37,912 nucleotides of DNA from an uncultured Actinomycetes bacterium. Its GTDB lineage: Bacteria > Actinomycetota > Acidimicrobiia > Acidimicrobiales > RAAP-2. The notes beneath the pieces are model-generated. The model made no database searches, was not told the origin of the DNA, and saw nothing but the letters and a program-made list of their open reading frames with translations. The stretch is from contig CAINFA010000053.1 in NCBI GenBank assembly GCA_903847955.1, forward strand, positions 1-37,912, given 5' to 3'. Below are positions 1,878 to 14,655 of the stretch, piece by piece. Each line of letters opens with the position of its first letter. The first letter of the stretch is position 1. The position numbers and the translations under genes were made by a program.

Positions 1878-2699
1878 TCAGTTGGCGGTGTGCGCCAGGC
1901 GACGTCGACGCCACGCCACGCCGCTCACGGCGAAGGCCACGCCAGCAACCGTGGTCACCACGAGCGCACCGTTGGGCCCACCAGTGGAGAGCTCGGCGCC
2001 GTTGCTCAGCGAGAAGTTGGAAATGGAGTGGACGTTGGTCAGCCCACCGGTTGAGCCGGTGAAACCGACGCGCACCGAACTCGGCAAGCTCACGGCAGTG
2101 GACAGGACCTGGTTGGCATCGACGAGCACCGTCAAGATCCCGCCGACGTAGGTGACCTCGACGTTGTGCGAGCCGTAGAGCGAGCTGGTCAGCGTCTTGG
2201 TCGCGAGCCAGGTCTTGGCGGCAGCCGTGCCACCGGTCAGGATGCCGACGAAGTTCTTCGACGGGTCGTTGACGTTCTGGTAGGTGTCGAGCGCCACACC
2301 CACGCCTGAGACGCCCACGTGGGTGGGGTCGGTGGTGAACCCGAGACCCCCGCCGCTCGACCCGAGGGTCGTCGCCGGGTTGGTCGAGGGGTTGGCGAAG
2401 GACAAGGTGACGCCGTCTGCTCCCCACGGCACGCCCATCTGGACCTGGAAGGTGACGTCGAGGTTGGCCGATGCCAGGGGGGTGTTGAGCCACGCCGAGC
2501 CGTCTTGGTTCGACAGGTTCTGGGTCAGGTTCAGCGTCGTGCCCGACACCGCGGCGTTGCCGTTGAGGGTCCAGGTGGCATCAGGTGGCCACGCCACGCT
2601 CGTCGCGCCTGCGATGGGGGCTGCCATGGCGGCGGCGAGCATCGCACCGACGGCGCTGGTGGCGAGGAGGCGGGTGGTGCGCCGGGAAGGATGGTTCAT
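1878..2699 (-). CDS. Secreted L-type-lectin-like domain protein with C-terminal TM/Arg tail
   Basis: Signal peptide MNHPSRRTTRLLATSAVGAMLAAAMAAPIAGA; beta-rich lectin-like domain; C-terminal hydrophobic helix plus RRRR. Confidence 0.7.
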   Translation of the reverse strand: MNHPSRRTTRLLATSAVGAMLAAAMAAPIAGATSVAWPPDATWTLNGNAAVSGTTLNLTQNLSNQDGSAWLNTPLASANLDVTFQVQMGVPWGADGVTLSFANPSTNPATTLGSSGGGLGFTTDPTHVGVSGVGVALDTYQNVNDPSKNFVGILTGGTAAAKTWLATKTLTSSLYGSHNVEVTYVGGILTVLVDANQVLSTAVSLPSSVRVGFTGSTGGLTNVHSISNFSLSNGAELSTGGPNGALVVTTVAGVAFAVSGVAWRRRRLAHTAN

Positions 2700-2725
2700 G
2701 AAGGACTCCGTAAGAAAAGGGGATG

Positions 2726-2753
2726 CCTCCGTAAGCAACGCCTTACACGGAGG
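2726..2753 (-). promoter_or_regulatory. 5' UTR hairpin containing a duplicated SD-like segment
   Basis: CCTCCGT/ACGGAGG stem with an inner AAG/CTT; CTCCGTAAG repeated at 2706-2714 and 2727-2735. Confidence 0.55.
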
Positions 2754-2863: not shown

Positions 2864-5095
2864 TCAGGCGGCAGATCGGCGGCGGCGCAGGAGCATGAGG
2901 CCACCGAAGAGCACCGCGATGGCTCCCACCAGGGCGAAGAGCCCCGTGTTGCCGGCCGCAGGAACCTCGGTGCCCTCGAGGTAGAAGGTGTTCGAGTCCG
3001 CGCCCTTGGTGATGGGCGGCTGGCCCTGCGGGGTCGTGATGGTGTCGACGTGGTTCCCGAAGGAGGTGATCGACCCCGGGTTGACCACGGTGGTCTCGAA
3101 GCACAGCTGCACCGGGTCACCGGTCCACGAAATCGAGGCACCAGGGGTGGCACTGGGCCAGGGAAGGTCGGTCGGAATACCCCGGACGGTGACCGCTGCG
3201 GTCAAGGCCGTGGTGTTGCCCGAGAAGGGGATCGACGAGATGTCGAGCACGCCACTGGGGGCAGCGACGTTCTCGAAGCCGGGCACGGGGATGCCGTCGG
3301 CGTCGTAGACGGTGACCAAGATGTCGCTGAAGGCAGAGCCCGGAGCCAACCCGGTGATCGAGACGTCGTGCCATGCCACCACGTGGTTGGTGCCACCGTC
3401 GCAGTAGGCGGCATTGATCGACGCGGTCGGGGCAGCGGAGACCTGGGTGGTTGCCGTGGTCTTGCAGGTGCCCTCGAGTCCTGTGGCGACGTCCACCGAG
3501 CGCAAGAGGCCCGAGTCAGCGTCGGTCCACAGGCACGTGGGGTCGTAGGGGTCGATCTGCTGGGAGTAGAGGCCCTCTTGGCCAGAGGTGTTCGTATCGC
3601 TCGGCCGGGTCGGCAGGTTGATGATCCCCGACGTGCCCCACCCACCGTTGGATCCGTTGCCCACCGAGCCGGTGCAGCCGGCGTTGGTCGACCAGTCGAA
3701 GCAGGCCAGCTGGTTACCCGAGACCGACCCCAGTTGGGAGGAGTAAACCATGAAGACCTTGGAGCCCGAAGGGTTGCCGAAGTCTGCCTTGAGCCCAGGG
3801 TTCGACGTCACGCCGATGCGGGCTTCGCTGAAGGCGTTGAGCGACCCAGCCGCAGCGGTGTTGACCGTGCCGTTGGCGTTGTAGCACGCCCAGTGGCCGG
3901 CGTAGTACGCACTGTGGCTGCAGACGCCCTGGCCAACGCCCTGGCTGTTGAGCAGCGGGACGAGGAACGACGAACCAGCTGCATTGACGCCTGAGGAGGC
4001 CGGGAAGTCATGGGCGGTGTTGACGTAGCCCGATGGGGTGCCTGACGGCTCACCGGTGGGGTGCCAGCTCGGGCAGGGGGTGCCGAGCACAGGGTCGTAG
4101 CACGTGATGCCCTCGAACTTGCCATCGCCCGCACTGGTCGAGTTCCCCGCCGAGGCCCACAAGAGCCCATCGCTGTAGATGCTCGAGTCGTCGGTGGGCT
4201 GGCTCGTCAAACCGGTGGTGATGGTGCCGCCGTTGCACAGGGCCATGGCGGTGGTCACGCAGTAGAACTTGTTGCCCGTCCAGACGTAGATCCGACTGCC
4301 GACGATCTGGGTGTCGACGTTGGCGTTGGCAGGGCCCAAGTCGAGCACCTGGGTGGGAGCACAGCCCACGGGGGACGATGCGCTGTTGAGGTCCACGCAG
4401 GCCAAGGCCAACTTGGAGGTCGTCTTGTCCTGCACCGAGAAGAACACCCGGTTGTCGGCCACGTCTTGGACCGGGGCGGCGCGGTCGATGGTTTGGACGG
4501 TCTTGGACACGTAGGTGTTGGAGTCAACCGCACCGGTCACCTTGTTGAAGCACTCGACGTTGAGCCCGGTGCCCTCGACGTGGAAGGTGGTGCAGACGTC
4601 AGACGGGGTGAAGTAGGCCTGGAACCCATCGCCACCGCTCTCTGACAGCGAGTTGTCGAGCGGCACGTTGGGCTTGGGGAGGATGGCCGAGCCACTGGTA
4701 GAGCTCGTACCGACGAACAAGTTGACGGCCCGAACGTTGGTCACGGTGCTGGCCGGCGAGGGCTCGGTGGTGACCCAGGTGGTGCCGTGGTCGGTCGACC
4801 ACTCCGGCGTCCAGCCAGCGGGAACGTTGAGCGAGCCAGCGACGTAGGAGTTCGGTGCTACGAGGGCGTCTCGGAGGTCCGCGTTGACGATCGATCCGGT
4901 GGTGTTCTCGTAGCTGATGGTCCACCGAATGGTGTCCCCGGTGCTGGCTTGGGACGTCGAGCCATTGGTGACGTCGACCCCGGACTTGGTCACCGTGGTG
5001 GTGGCAGCGAAGACCGGCGTCGCGGTCATGGTGACCACAGCGGTGGCGGCCACGACCGAGGTGATGCCGCGCTTGAGCGTTGCGGAGAGCTTCAT
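2864..5095 (-). CDS. Large secreted surface protein with DUF11-like N-terminal region and C-terminal cell-wall/membrane anchor
   Basis: Signal peptide MKLSATLKRGITSVVAATAVVTMTATPVFA; C-terminus 'EVPAAGNTGLFALVGAIAVLFGGLMLLRRRRSAA'. Confidence 0.78.
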   Translation of the reverse strand: MKLSATLKRGITSVVAATAVVTMTATPVFAATTTVTKSGVDVTNGSTSQASTGDTIRWTISYENTTGSIVNADLRDALVAPNSYVAGSLNVPAGWTPEWSTDHGTTWVTTEPSPASTVTNVRAVNLFVGTSSTSGSAILPKPNVPLDNSLSESGGDGFQAYFTPSDVCTTFHVEGTGLNVECFNKVTGAVDSNTYVSKTVQTIDRAAPVQDVADNRVFFSVQDKTTSKLALACVDLNSASSPVGCAPTQVLDLGPANANVDTQIVGSRIYVWTGNKFYCVTTAMALCNGGTITTGLTSQPTDDSSIYSDGLLWASAGNSTSAGDGKFEGITCYDPVLGTPCPSWHPTGEPSGTPSGYVNTAHDFPASSGVNAAGSSFLVPLLNSQGVGQGVCSHSAYYAGHWACYNANGTVNTAAAGSLNAFSEARIGVTSNPGLKADFGNPSGSKVFMVYSSQLGSVSGNQLACFDWSTNAGCTGSVGNGSNGGWGTSGIINLPTRPSDTNTSGQEGLYSQQIDPYDPTCLWTDADSGLLRSVDVATGLEGTCKTTATTQVSAAPTASINAAYCDGGTNHVVAWHDVSITGLAPGSAFSDILVTVYDADGIPVPGFENVAAPSGVLDISSIPFSGNTTALTAAVTVRGIPTDLPWPSATPGASISWTGDPVQLCFETTVVNPGSITSFGNHVDTITTPQGQPPITKGADSNTFYLEGTEVPAAGNTGLFALVGAIAVLFGGLMLLRRRRSAA

Positions 5096-9009: not shown

Positions 9010-9149
9010 GAGGTACTGCCTTTCAGGCTTCGGTCTCGGGTCACCATAGCAATGGTCCTCAGCGTCGCCTTCGCGGGCGCCCAAGTCCTGCTCGAGCGCG
9101 GTCCTAGGCTGGAAGAGCAGTGCGCCAGCACGACCAGAGAGGACCCGTC

Positions 9150-11123
9150 ATGAGCAACCAGAGCCAGCTCAGCGCCGGCTCACGCCTGGTCATCGGGTTG
9201 CTCAGCTTGGCCTGCACGTTCCTCGGGTGGCCCAGCATTGCCGGGGCCTCATCGGCGCTGCCAGCCACCTTGCAGGTCGCAGTCACCACCATCAACGTGG
9301 GAGCCGTTCGGGTCGGCACCATCGGGTACGCAACCTTCGACGTCGTCGACGACAACGAGAACCCGGCGCTGTCGAACGTGATCGGAACCTCGACCGGCCC
9401 GACGAGCGGTCCGTTCCGCATGATCTCAACCATCGCGGTTGGCACCGAGCTCTCCCTCGGTGACATCGTGCCGGTGCAGGTGGCCTTCCAGCCCACCACC
9501 ACCGGGCCGGCATCGACCTCGGTCACCTTGGCCACCGTCGGTGGCGCACCACTGACGATCACCGTGGTGGGGACCGGGTCAGGGGCTGGCTACGGCCTCC
9601 CCGCCGTGGCGAACAGCACCTGGTCGATCAACGGTTCGGCCTACGTCGATGCGTCAGGACTCACCCTCACCACCGCAGGCGTGGGTGAGGCCGGCGATGC
9701 CCTCTTCCCCGTTCCGGCCTCCACCTCGAGCATCTCGGCCAGCTTCAACCTCGACGTCGGCGGTGGCAGCGGGGCCGATGGCGCCGCCTTCGACCTCCTC
9801 GCTCCATCAACCTCACCAACCTCTGTGGGAGGCATCGGCCAGGCGATGGGCTTCGGTGGCCTCCAGGGGATGGCGGTCGTCTTCGGTGAGTACCTCGAAC
9901 CGGGCGCCCCCCAGGCCGACTTCATCGGCATCACCGATGGGATGAACCCCGATGGATCGCTGCACTACCTCGCCACCGCCCCGGTGACCGCCCCGCTCAC
10001 CTTGGGCAGCTCCACCAACGTGGTGGTGATCACCATCACCGCAGGCGTGGTGTCGGTCTCCCTCGACGGCTACCTCCAGCTGAGCCAGGCGGTGAGCTTG
10101 CCGTCGACCGCCATGGTCGGCTTCGCTGCGTCGACCGGCGGCCTCGACGACAACCACGTACTCACCGACATCTCGGTCACGGTGGGAGGAGCACCGCCCA
10201 CCAACCCGGTCGTGCTCACTGCCGCCAAGCCCTGCCTGACCTCGATGCCCGTGGGGAGTGTGACGACCTGCACGATCCTCGCGACCAACACGGGGGCCGC
10301 TCCGGTCACGCTGACCTCGGTCACCATTGCTGGTAGTACCGCCATCGCCCTCGGGAGCACGCCGAGCATCGGGCAGCAGCTGGCGCCGGGGGCATCGACG
10401 CCGATCACGGTCTTAGCAACGCCATCGGTGAGTGGGAGCGCATCGGCCACGGTGTCGCTCCGTGTGCTCGACATCGTGGGGGCATCGACCTGCGTGGTCG
10501 CCGGGGTTGCCAGCGGCGCTGCTCGACGCCTCCCGAGCCTCGGCGCGCCACAGTGGACCATGAGCGGCACCGCTGCCAGCCACGGGACGAGCGTCACCTT
10601 GACCGGCCTGCACCCCTTCGCCGCAGGTGCGGCGTACCTCTCAAGTTCTGTCGCCACGACCAACCTGGCGGTGCGGTTCAACGTCACGGTGGGGACGAGC
10701 AGCCACTGCTGCGGCGATGCCACGGCGCTGAACCTCGTGACGGGCTCGACCCGGCCGACGGTCGGCGCCAATGGCGCCAATGCTGGCATCTCGACCTCGC
10801 CGGGCATCTCGGTCGTCCTCGGTGAGTTCCCCGATCCGGGCGCACCTGGACCCACCTACGTCGCCATCGTTAACGACGCGCGCCATGGTGCGCACCTCGC
10901 CTTCGTCGCCTCAGCAGCGCTGAGCACGCTCGTCATCGGCCACACCACCGCCGTGCTGGTCGCCATCGCCCACGGCAAGGTCACCGTGTGGGTGAACGGG
11001 GTGCCGGTGTGCTCGGCCAAGGTCGTCCTCCCCACCACCGCGCACCTTGGATTCTCTGCTGGCAGCGGCGAGCTCTACGCCAGCCACAGCGTCTCAGGGG
11101 TGCTCATCGCTGATCACGCTTGA
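9150..11123 (+). CDS. Secreted protein with an Ig/choice-of-anchor-like region and two L-type-lectin-like domains
   Basis: Signal peptide; two 'W[ST]xxGxA...VGFxxSTGGL/LGFSAGSGEL' modules similar to the 1878-2699 protein. Confidence 0.65.
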   Translation: MSNQSQLSAGSRLVIGLLSLACTFLGWPSIAGASSALPATLQVAVTTINVGAVRVGTIGYATFDVVDDNENPALSNVIGTSTGPTSGPFRMISTIAVGTELSLGDIVPVQVAFQPTTTGPASTSVTLATVGGAPLTITVVGTGSGAGYGLPAVANSTWSINGSAYVDASGLTLTTAGVGEAGDALFPVPASTSSISASFNLDVGGGSGADGAAFDLLAPSTSPTSVGGIGQAMGFGGLQGMAVVFGEYLEPGAPQADFIGITDGMNPDGSLHYLATAPVTAPLTLGSSTNVVVITITAGVVSVSLDGYLQLSQAVSLPSTAMVGFAASTGGLDDNHVLTDISVTVGGAPPTNPVVLTAAKPCLTSMPVGSVTTCTILATNTGAAPVTLTSVTIAGSTAIALGSTPSIGQQLAPGASTPITVLATPSVSGSASATVSLRVLDIVGASTCVVAGVASGAARRLPSLGAPQWTMSGTAASHGTSVTLTGLHPFAAGAAYLSSSVATTNLAVRFNVTVGTSSHCCGDATALNLVTGSTRPTVGANGANAGISTSPGISVVLGEFPDPGAPGPTYVAIVNDARHGAHLAFVASAALSTLVIGHTTAVLVAIAHGKVTVWVNGVPVCSAKVVLPTTAHLGFSAGSGELYASHSVSGVLIADHA

Positions 11124-11150: not shown

Positions 11151-11191
11151 TGACCTCGAACCTCGGCTCGCGCAGCACCACCGCACCGTGA
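11150..11191 (+). CDS. Putative leaderless 13-aa leader peptide (MTSNLGSRSTTAP) overlapping the next gene by GTGA
   Basis: GTG at the predicted TSS; stop TGA 11189-11191 overlaps GTG start 11188-11190. Confidence 0.4.
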   Translation: MTSNLGSRSTTAP

Positions 11192-13395
11192 GGCCACCGA
11201 CGCGCTCGGCGAGATTCCTGGTCAGCGCCCTCGTTGGGGCCGTCGCGGCCGCCGTTACCATCAGTACGCTCAGCCCCACCCACGCCCCCCGAGCAGCAGC
11301 GACCACCGCTCCCGCCATCACCTACGCAGCACTCGGCGATGGGGTAGCCGCAGGGGTTGGGGCAGGAGCGGCCATCGCCGGCTCACCAACGGGTTGCGAC
11401 CGCACCAGTGGCAGCTACGCCGCCCTCGTGGCTCGCGCCGAGCCGTCGCTTGTCTCGGTGAACGTCGCCTGCGCTGGTGCCACCACGAAGAACCTCGACC
11501 CCTCGGCCCCGAGCGCGGTGCCGGCCTCGAGCAACGGCGCTGCTGCTGGCCCACAACTCGACCGTGCCCGCCTCCACGTGGGACCCTCGGCCAAGTTGGT
11601 GACGGTCACCGTGGGCGCCGCCGATCTTCGCCTCACCTCGGTGCTCACCTCGTGTCTCAGCTCGGGCTGCACGAGCGAAGGCGCCATCGCCGGGCTGACC
11701 AACGAGCTCAAGGCACTCCCTGCCGCTCTGGATGCCACCTTGGCCGCGGTCAAGGCGTCGGCGCCCAACGCCACCGTTGAGGTCGTCGCCTACCCCGACT
11801 GGGTGCCACCGACCCCGACTATGACCGAGGTGGCTGCGTGCGCTGCAGCACACGTACTCTCGGGGAACGCCACTGGCGCGGCTGTCACCACCAGGGTCAT
11901 TGCGTCCGTTGCGGTCATCGGCGCCATCCAAGCGAGCCTCAACGGCGACCTGGCCCAAGCTGCGGCCCGGACCGGGATCCACTTCGTCAACCCCAACCTG
12001 ACCGGCAGCCCCGGCCAGTCCCTCAAGCACACCTGGTGCACCCAGGCACCGTGGATCGCCACAGCTGGAGCGTCGGCCACGTTGCCCACGGCCTCAGGAC
12101 AGCGGGCGATCGCGAGCGACGTCACCGCCGCGATCGCCGCCGATGGGCTCGGGCTCGGCGCCATCGCCACCCCGTCGCTCGCCACCCCACAGCTGCTCAC
12201 GAGCGTGGCTCACGCGCTGTCGTCGATCAAGAACGCCGATGATGCGCTCAGCTGCCCGTCGGCCACGATGTGCGTGGCCGGTGGCTCCTACGAAGACGGC
12301 ACCAAGGCGGTGCAGGCCTCGGTCGCCATTGTGACGCCGAACCACCCGGCGACCTCGATGCAGCTCCCCCTGCCCTCCACCGACGTGAGTTCCAACCCCC
12401 AAGCCAACGTGGTCGGGGTCAGCTGCACCTCCACCTCGAGCTGCACCGCCGTGGTCGACTACTTCAATGCGGGCGGCTTCGGGGTCGCTGGGGTGTCGAG
12501 CTACAACGGGCACACCTGGTCGGCAGTGAGCCCACTGCCGGTCCCCGCACAGAGCGCGAACCCCAGCTACGTCTCGGCCAGCGGGATCAGCTGCACCCGC
12601 CCCACCACCTGCGTGGTGGTTGGCAACTTCACCGAGGCCACCGCACCAGATGCCACCTCGGTGCCCAACGTCGATCCCTACGTCGCCTCCGAGCTCAACG
12701 GCACCTGGTCGGCGAACCAGGTGCTCGCCCCCCAAGGAGCACCGACCACCAATGGCTACGCCCTGTTCAACGCCGTCAGCTGCCCGGTCACTGGAACGTG
12801 TGAGGCCGTGGGCTACTACACCAACGCCTCGGACAACCAAGTTCCCTTGGCCGCGGCCGACCACGACGGCACCTGGTCCCAGGCGGTCACCGTGGCTGTC
12901 CCGCCCCAAGGGACCAATGGGCTTGGGGGGCTCAACGGCGTGTCGTGTCCAGCGCCAGGATCCTGCGTGGCGGTTGGCGCCTTCGCCGCCAAGCTGGCCG
13001 TGCCGACCAAGAAGGACACCTCGGTAGAGGTGGTCGAGGGCTTCACCACCACCTTGCACGGTTCGAACGTCTCGAGCCCGCAGCCCGTGGCGCTCCTCGA
13101 GCCGGTGGCTGCGTGGGACGATGCCCAGTTGAGCGCCATCAGCTGCCCGTCGGTGGCAACCTGCCTCGCCGTGGGATGGGAGCTCACCAGTGCCAGCGGC
13201 ACCGAGCGGGCGCCCATCGAGGTGACCTTGAGTGAAGACCAAGGCTGGTTGCCCCCAACCTTCGCTCCCCTCCCCACGAGCACCAACCACTACCTCGCTT
13301 CAGCCGAGCTCCAAGCGGTGAGCTGCGCGGGGCCCAGTTGTGCCGCAGCGGGCTTCGACTTCACCGCGTCCAACACCTACCTCGCACTGGGTTGA
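11188..13395 (+). CDS. Secreted SGNH-hydrolase-like (probably catalytically inactive) domain fused to seven Cys-containing propeller-like repeats
   Basis: 'YAALGDGVAAGVG', 'CAGATTKNL', 'VTVTVGAADL', 'TLPTASGQRAIA'; seven 'SC-x(n)-C-x-A-x-G' repeats. Confidence 0.75.
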   Translation: MRPPTRSARFLVSALVGAVAAAVTISTLSPTHAPRAAATTAPAITYAALGDGVAAGVGAGAAIAGSPTGCDRTSGSYAALVARAEPSLVSVNVACAGATTKNLDPSAPSAVPASSNGAAAGPQLDRARLHVGPSAKLVTVTVGAADLRLTSVLTSCLSSGCTSEGAIAGLTNELKALPAALDATLAAVKASAPNATVEVVAYPDWVPPTPTMTEVAACAAAHVLSGNATGAAVTTRVIASVAVIGAIQASLNGDLAQAAARTGIHFVNPNLTGSPGQSLKHTWCTQAPWIATAGASATLPTASGQRAIASDVTAAIAADGLGLGAIATPSLATPQLLTSVAHALSSIKNADDALSCPSATMCVAGGSYEDGTKAVQASVAIVTPNHPATSMQLPLPSTDVSSNPQANVVGVSCTSTSSCTAVVDYFNAGGFGVAGVSSYNGHTWSAVSPLPVPAQSANPSYVSASGISCTRPTTCVVVGNFTEATAPDATSVPNVDPYVASELNGTWSANQVLAPQGAPTTNGYALFNAVSCPVTGTCEAVGYYTNASDNQVPLAAADHDGTWSQAVTVAVPPQGTNGLGGLNGVSCPAPGSCVAVGAFAAKLAVPTKKDTSVEVVEGFTTTLHGSNVSSPQPVALLEPVAAWDDAQLSAISCPSVATCLAVGWELTSASGTERAPIEVTLSEDQGWLPPTFAPLPTSTNHYLASAELQAVSCAGPSCAAAGFDFTASNTYLALG

Positions 13396-13419: not shown

Positions 13420-14655
13420 GTGCCCGAGGTCGACGTCGCCATCGTCGGCGCAGGCCTGGCCGGCCTCCGCTGCGCCCAAGTGCTCGAAGCGAGCGGGCTC
13501 GAGGTGGCGGTCTTCGAGCGGGGAGCAACGGTCGGTGGTCGAATCCAGACCGACGTCGTCGATGGCTACCTCATCGACCGGGGGTTCCAGTTGCTCAACC
13601 CCGCCTACGCCGCCCTGCGGGCATCGCTCGATCTCGCCGCCCTCGAGCTGCGCCCCCTCGTGGCCGGGGTGGCCTTGGGCTCGGTGACCGGGCCAACGCT
13701 CCTCGACCCCCGCCGAGCCCCGGGCTCGTTGCCAGCAACCCTGCAGGCGCTTCCAGGTCCGCGTCGCTCCCAGCTGGCCTTCGGGCGCTTGGCGGCCCAA
13801 ACGCTCATTGCTCCCCAAGCCGTGAGCCGTCGCCTGGGCTCAGTGAGCACGGCGGAGGGCTTGACCCGGCTTGGCATCACCGGGCCGCTCCGCTCCACGC
13901 TCCTCGACCCCTTCTTGGTTGGCGTCACCCTCGACCCCGACCTCGAAGTGCCCCTCGGCTTCACCACCTTGGTGCTGCGCTCGATGCTGCTCGGCCGACC
14001 CTCGGTGCCTGCTCGGGGCATGGGAGAGCTTCCCCGGCAGCTCGCCCGGCAGCTCGCCACCTCCACGGTGCGCCTCGGCGCCGAGGTTGAACGGGCCTCG
14101 GCCACCGAGGTCTTCGTCGAGGGCACCACCTACCGAGCCAAGGCCGTCGTGCTGGGGGTCGATGCTCAGGCGCTGTCCCGCTTCGACCCCGACCTCCCTC
14201 CCCCGCCCATGGGGTCGGTCACCACCTACTGGCATGCCACCAGCGGCTCGGCAGGGCGGGCTCTGCTGGCCGTTGCGCCCCAAGGTCCGTGGAACTCGGT
14301 CGAACTCTCTGCCGCTGCCCCCCGCTACGCCCCCGCTGGCCGGAGGCTCTTCGCCACCTCCACTCCAACCCGGGTGCCAGATGCTGCGGCGCGCACCGCA
14401 GCAGCAGCGCTGCAGGGCCTCGCCGAAGGGGACCTTGAGCTCGTGGCCGTGACCGAGGTCGACGCCGCGCTCCCCCTCGGGCGGCCGCCGCTCGAACTCG
14501 ACCGGCTTGCGCAGTCCCATGGACGATTCGTAGCCGGCGACCACACCACCACCGCCTCCATCCAAGGTGCCCTCGTGTCTGGAGCCCGTGCGGCGCACGC
14601 CGTCATGGCAACCTTGGGCGTGGATCCACCGAGGAAGCCTCGACCACCGCGCTGA
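13420..14655 (+). CDS. FAD-dependent amine oxidase / phytoene desaturase-like protein
   Basis: 'VAIVGAGLAGLRCAQVLEASGLEVAVFERGATVGGRIQTD' dinucleotide-binding motif; C-terminal 'FVAGDHTTTASIQGALVSGARAA'. Confidence 0.9.
   Translation: MPEVDVAIVGAGLAGLRCAQVLEASGLEVAVFERGATVGGRIQTDVVDGYLIDRGFQLLNPAYAALRASLDLAALELRPLVAGVALGSVTGPTLLDPRRAPGSLPATLQALPGPRRSQLAFGRLAAQTLIAPQAVSRRLGSVSTAEGLTRLGITGPLRSTLLDPFLVGVTLDPDLEVPLGFTTLVLRSMLLGRPSVPARGMGELPRQLARQLATSTVRLGAEVERASATEVFVEGTTYRAKAVVLGVDAQALSRFDPDLPPPPMGSVTTYWHATSGSAGRALLAVAPQGPWNSVELSAAAPRYAPAGRRLFATSTPTRVPDAAARTAAAALQGLAEGDLELVAVTEVDAALPLGRPPLELDRLAQSHGRFVAGDHTTTASIQGALVSGARAAHAVMATLGVDPPRKPRPPR

What the first reader, a model, noticed from the sequence alone, without database searches (positions are those of the whole stretch)
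11188..12240. SGNH-like domain with all key catalytic residues apparently replaced
The domain retains the framework of secreted GDSL/SGNH lipases ('YAALGDGVAAGVG', 'CAGATTKNL', 'VTVTVGAADL', 'KHTWCTQAPWI', 'TLPTASGQRAIA'). The GDS serine is Gly (GDG, 11335-11343), the GxND asparagine is Ala (GAAD), and the terminal HP histidine is Leu (LP). This looks like a pseudo-hydrolase repurposed for binding or scaffolding.
Basis: partly seen in the sequence, partly recalled or inferred. Interest (0 to 1): 0.72.

Follow-up and report, generated by a model that had tools for sequence, protein, structure and literature searches.

The report
Dead lipase domain fused to propeller
A secreted protein of an uncultured actinobacterium carries a lipase-like domain that kept its fold but lost its catalytic serine, asparagine and histidine, joined to a predicted seven-bladed propeller; it is very probably a non-enzymatic (binding or structural) descendant of an esterase, a kind of protein already known in plants but little described in bacteria.

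Summary
The domain passes Pfam's Lipase_GDSL_2 cut-off and aligns with, and is predicted to fold like, Streptomyces rimosus lipase (5mal), S. albidoflavus PLA1 (4hyq) and S. scabies esterase (1esc). At the positions of SrL Ser10/Asn82/His216 it has Gly52/Ala145/Leu299. Each SrL Ala mutant alone is reported to abolish activity (PMC10779480). Among 147 distinct homologous domains only the window lacks Ser, and only the window lacks all three. The oxyanion Gly (CAGAT), six-Cys pattern and reading frame are intact, so 'all key residues' is slightly overstated: three of four SGNH residues are gone. Two relatives from the same family also carry His->Leu; one of them also lacks Asn. Both are fused to RCC1 repeats and group with the window in the best tree, but not decisively. 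Most likely a secreted SGNH-fold pseudoenzyme working as a binding or structural module; that role is inferred and the ligand unknown. Plant GDSL pseudoenzymes (ERMO3/MVP1, also Gly at the nucleophile) are precedents.

The parts
11188..13395 (+). whole gene, 735 aa, probably secreted protein (SGNH-like domain + C-terminal beta-propeller)
   Evidence: ORF and translation; GC by codon position 0.67/0.64/0.82 in the SGNH part and 0.59/0.58/0.86 in the propeller, like the neighbouring genes
11188..11307 (+). N-terminal signal peptide by eye (basic RPPTRSAR, hydrophobic FLVSALVGAVAAAVTISTL, APRAAA end)
   Evidence: read from the sequence; no signal-peptide predictor was available
11314..12150 (+). 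SGNH (GDSL-like) domain, residues about 43-321
   Evidence: Pfam PF13472 over cut-off; AlphaFold pTM 0.75; Foldseek to 5mal/1esc/4hyq
11335..11343 (+). block I GDG: catalytic Ser position is Gly52
   Evidence: aligned with SaPLA1/SrL GDS
11470..11484 (+). block II CAGAT: oxyanion Gly97 retained
11614..11625 (+). block III GAAD in place of GGND: oxyanion Asn is Ala145
12082..12087 (+). block V LP in place of HP: catalytic His is Leu299
12208..13392 (+). C-terminal domain, predicted seven-bladed beta-propeller with seven Cys pairs, residues 341-735
   Evidence: Cys positions; AlphaFold pLDDT 80, pTM 0.86; Foldseek to CylK, GH145 and sialidase-type propellers; homologues across the family

Best explanation
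A secreted SGNH-fold pseudoenzyme. An ancestral secreted lipase/esterase of the SrL/SaPLA1 type lost its catalytic His, oxyanion Asn and nucleophilic Ser while its core fold, Cys pattern and block II Gly were kept. The dead domain sits in front of a predicted Cys-clasped seven-bladed beta-propeller. Shown by sequence: homology, loss of the three residues, intact frame, the fusion. Predicted: the two folds. Inferred: export, absence of hydrolysis, and that the protein now works as a two-module extracellular binding or structural protein (the old active-site pocket and the propeller face as ligand or partner surfaces).
For: Homology to SrL, SaPLA1 and SsEst by sequence and predicted fold (TM 0.79 on 5mal). 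The lost residues are the homologues of SrL Ser10, Asn82 and His216, each of which abolishes activity when changed to Ala (PMC10779480). Of 19 columns at least 93% conserved among the other homologues the window keeps 16, and the three lost are all in active-site motifs: Ser, the first Gly of GGND, and His. Cys 70, 95 and 156 are near-invariant, and there are six Cys in the same order as in the nearest relatives. There is no Ser or Cys between residues 30 and 65 and no His after residue 281 of the domain. The retained His281 (KHTWC) aligns with the GHxxC His that SrL also has, and SrL H216A is inactive in spite of it. Two relatives with His->Leu (L064 S-D-L, L063 S-G-L) are also followed by C-terminal RCC1 repeats and group with the window (88/85). 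Codon-position GC is normal and there is no stop in 2.2 kb.
Against: No orthologue with the same three changes was found, so selection on the dead domain cannot be measured; the branch is long (1.5-2 changes per column), which also fits relaxed constraint. No ligand, partner, expression or activity data. The domain model is only moderate (pLDDT 69).
Confidence: 0.75

Rival explanations
1. The SGNH domain is simply decaying: a fused, no longer needed esterase module under relaxed constraint, with the propeller as the only functional part.
For: Long branch and alanine-rich composition (23.5% Ala; make-up flag); no orthologue sharing the changes among the relatives searched.
Against: Frame fully open, GC3 0.82, six-Cys pattern and 16 of 19 near-invariant residues kept; the losses are concentrated on the active site.
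Confidence: 0.17
2. It is still an enzyme with a rearranged active site or a different chemistry, in the SGNH pocket or in the propeller (the propeller resembles that of CylK and of GH145 and sialidases).
For: Best propeller matches include catalytic propellers (CylK 7ron, GH145-type 5mvh/5muk, sialidases); block II Gly kept.
Against: No Ser, Cys or His near blocks I and V; propeller matches are general fold matches at 8-14% identity, and lectins of similar fold (PLL/PHL) score alike.
Confidence: 0.06
3. The substitutions are sequencing or assembly errors in a draft genome and the protein is an ordinary active lipase.
For: The genome is a draft in 245 contigs.
Against: Three separate codons (GGG, GCC, TTG) are changed in an otherwise intact 2.2 kb frame; the same His->Leu occurs in two other genomes.
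Confidence: 0.02

Closest known systems
Streptomyces rimosus extracellular lipase SrL (PDB 5mal) and S. albidoflavus phospholipase A1 (4hyq)
   Same: secreted actinobacterial SGNH fold, six Cys, CxGA block II, Ser-His dyad subfamily; best structural match (TM 0.79 on 5mal)
   Different: Ser10, Asn82 and His216 are Gly, Ala and Leu here; SrL and SaPLA1 are single-domain active enzymes without a propeller
ERMO3/MVP1/GOLD36 (At1g54030), Arabidopsis GDSL pseudoenzyme
   Same: GDSL-family protein with Gly at the nucleophile (a G59S variant was made), reported to lack lipase activity yet needed for ER morphology, with protein partners (PMC3498303, PMC4757993)
   Different: plant protein, no propeller; not shown to be closely related; only the nucleophile position was compared here
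SGNH + RCC1-repeat proteins of two uncultured actinobacteria (G163:C25, G164:C1; loci L064 and L063)
   Same: same SGNH subfamily (36-37% identity), His->Leu at block V, C-terminal repeat-domain fusion
   Different: Ser retained (S-D-L and S-G-L), extra N-terminal region, RCC1 repeats instead of Cys-pair repeats
CtCE2 of Clostridium thermocellum Cel5C-CE2
   Same: SGNH-type esterase domain whose active-site cleft also does non-catalytic carbohydrate binding (Montanier 2009, PMC2661963)
   Different: CtCE2 keeps its Ser-His dyad and esterase activity

Membership tests
SGNH/GDSL hydrolase superfamily (fold and sequence family, PF13472) | profile match and three-layer alpha/beta/alpha SGNH fold | tested here: met
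   PF13472 39.3 bits over cut-off 32.9; AlphaFold + Foldseek to 5mal, 1esc, 4hyq
SGNH/GDSL hydrolase superfamily (as active enzyme) | block I nucleophilic Ser | tested here: not met
   Gly52; Ser in the other 145 of 146 aligned domains
SGNH/GDSL hydrolase superfamily (as active enzyme) | block II oxyanion Gly | tested here: met
   Gly97 in CAGAT
SGNH/GDSL hydrolase superfamily (as active enzyme) | block III oxyanion Asn | tested here: not met
   Ala145; Asn in 126 and Asp in 18 of 146 aligned domains
SGNH/GDSL hydrolase superfamily (as active enzyme) | block V catalytic His | tested here: not met
   Leu299; His in 126 of 130 aligned domains
SGNH/GDSL hydrolase superfamily (as active enzyme) | ester hydrolysis | not testable with these tools
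   needs purified protein
Pseudoenzyme of the SGNH family | retained fold with loss of residues essential for catalysis | tested here: met
   essentiality taken from SrL mutants (PMC10779480)
Pseudoenzyme of the SGNH family | maintained by selection for another function | tested here: inconclusive
   open frame, normal codon-position GC and conserved Cys; no orthologue for dN/dS
Seven-bladed beta-propeller | seven sheet repeats around an axis | tested here: met
   seven Cys-pair repeats and AlphaFold pTM 0.86; a prediction, with Foldseek matches only at fold level

The most novel reading that the evidence does not exclude
A lineage of actinobacteria turned secreted SGNH esterases into non-catalytic modules by stepwise loss of His, then Asn, then Ser, each fused in front of a repeat domain that forms a propeller, giving a class of two-module extracellular lectin- or adhesin-like proteins not described before.
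Probability: 0.25. Interest if true: 0.55.

Novelty: new variant of a known kind. Interest (0 to 1): 0.42.

Why it matters
GDSL pseudoenzymes have been discussed mostly in plants; the few papers found here describe none from a bacterium with all three catalytic residues gone, though the library searched is only part of the literature. This one sits beside relatives that have lost one or two of the same residues, so it offers a series for studying how a lipase fold is turned into a non-enzyme. It is also a practical warning: a Pfam-based annotation would call this protein a GDSL lipase.

Tried and rejected
A shared catalytic-His loss with L063/L064 as one event: the best tree says so with (88/85) and without (86/63) the active-site columns, but the AU test does not reject a tree with the window outside (p = 0.27), so it is left open. 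Conserved gene neighbourhood: the neighbours of the L063/L064 genes, judged only from the start of their translations, do not resemble the window's. The first genome-contig scan with the single sequence found nothing. NCBIfam gave no match for the protein. No promoter-like site near the gene, and terminator-like sites no more than chance.

Full report
Observation. The ORF that contains the finding runs from GTG 11188 to the stop at 13395 on the + strand, 735 aa. The start is the most likely one because the upstream gene ends at 11123 and the residues after 11188 read as a signal peptide (by eye; no predictor was available, and no clear Shine-Dalgarno site precedes it). The three replaced codons are GGG (Gly52, 11341), GCC (Ala145, 11620) and TTG (Leu299, 12082).

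Family. Residues 48-279 match Pfam Lipase_GDSL_2 at 39.3 bits, above its cut-off of 32.9. phmmer finds S. albidoflavus phospholipase A1 (4hyq) and S. rimosus lipase (5mal). A profile of the window and eight relatives finds 4hyq, 5mal and 1esc with E-values of 2e-39, 4e-34 and 1e-21, with blocks I to III and the HP of block V in register. An AlphaFold model (pLDDT 69, pTM 0.75) has 5mal, 1esc and 4hyq as its three best PDB matches.

Active site. Homologous domains were collected from the window's own family, its order and class, and from named genomes, 147 distinct in all. Ser is present in 145 of 146 with that column; the exception is the window. Asn or Asp is present in 144 of 146. His is present in 126 of 130; the exceptions are Leu in the window, L063 and L064, and Ile in L169, probably a misalignment. 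Only the window lacks all three. Of 19 columns that are at least 93% conserved in the other sequences the window keeps 16; the three it lost are the Ser, the first Gly of GGND, and the His (the residue numbers printed there run one too high). The residue after the nucleophile, Tyr or Phe in 136 of 146, is Val in the window, Ile in L063 and Leu in L064. In SrL, Ser10Ala, Asn82Ala and His216Ala each abolish activity, while Gly54Ala, at the block II Gly that the window keeps, lowers it only moderately (PMC10779480). So hydrolysis by the usual mechanism is not expected.

Could other residues serve? There is no Ser or Cys between residues 30 and 65, and the last His of the domain is His281 in KHTWC. 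That His aligns with the conserved GHxxC His, which SrL also has and which does not keep SrL His216Ala active.

Is the domain maintained? The frame is open for 2.2 kb. GC by codon position is 0.67/0.64/0.82 in the SGNH part, 0.59/0.58/0.86 in the propeller, and similar in the flanking genes. Cys 70, 95 and 156 are near-invariant in the family, and the window has six Cys in the same order as its nearest relatives. No orthologue sharing the changes was found, so dN/dS could not be computed, and the long branch leaves room for relaxed constraint.

Relatives on the way. The nearest relatives are L023/L037 and L038 (G122, G151; S-D-H and S-N-H) and the pair L064 (G163; S-D-L) and L063 (G164; S-G-L). 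L063 and L064 carry RCC1 repeats after the SGNH domain (Pfam); RCC1 repeats are known to form seven-bladed propellers (established knowledge, not modelled here). The five form a supported group (90/93; 95/92 without the active-site columns). Within it the three His->Leu proteins group at 88/85 and 86/63, and the AU test does not reject the alternative (p = 0.27). One loss of His in a common ancestor is therefore possible, not shown.

C-terminal domain. Residues 341-735 contain seven Cys pairs, and the domain is predicted as a beta-propeller with pTM 0.86. Its PDB matches include the enzyme CylK, GH145-type proteins, sialidases, and Photorhabdus lectins, all at fold level, so neither catalysis nor binding can be read from them. 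Such domains are widespread in the family: 126 of 172 genomes match the whole protein, mostly over this part.

Surroundings. The gene directly upstream (9120-11123) has matches to L-type lectin and HYDIN/choice-of-anchor-D domains, the lectin match below Pfam's cut-off, and a second protein similar to it lies at 1878-2738 on the - strand. Downstream lies a flavin amine oxidase-like gene (13420-14655). The genes around L063 and L064 do not look alike.

Known or new. GDSL pseudoenzymes are known from plants. ERMO3/MVP1/GOLD36 has Gly in place of the nucleophile and works without it (PMC3498303; PMC4757993). The SrL paper notes that GDSL motif variants can give pseudoenzymes. In CtCE2 an esterase active site also binds cellulose without catalysis (PMC2661963). 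What is new here is a bacterial, probably secreted protein with three of the four SGNH residues lost, fused to a Cys-paired propeller, with partly dead relatives. I rate it a new variant of a known kind, of moderate interest. The inactivity is near certain by sequence; the function as a binding or structural module is inferred.

Noticed in passing
window 12208-13392: Seven Cys-pair repeats predicted to form a seven-bladed propeller, a domain common across the family (126 of 172 genomes match the protein, mostly here) and without a Pfam or NCBIfam match.
   Followed up: yes
window 9120-11123: Probably secreted protein with L-type lectin-like and choice-of-anchor-D/HYDIN-like stretches directly upstream, possibly one operon; relatives occur in 14 of 172 genomes of the family, including G163 and G164, which carry the other His->Leu SGNH proteins (at other loci).
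   Followed up: partly
window 1878-2738 (-): Second lectin-like protein (matched by the 9120 gene) with a C-terminal hydrophobic anchor by eye.
   Followed up: no
window 2864-5095 (-): 743-aa protein without Pfam match, with a signal peptide, a C-terminal hydrophobic stretch and an RRRR tail by eye.
   Followed up: no
L071 (G353:C104): SGNH homologue with GSS in place of GDS; Ser, Asn and His are kept.
   Followed up: no
L063 (G164:C1) and L064 (G163:C25): SGNH + RCC1 proteins that also lack the block V His, with the block III Asn changed to Gly and Asp respectively.
   Followed up: yes
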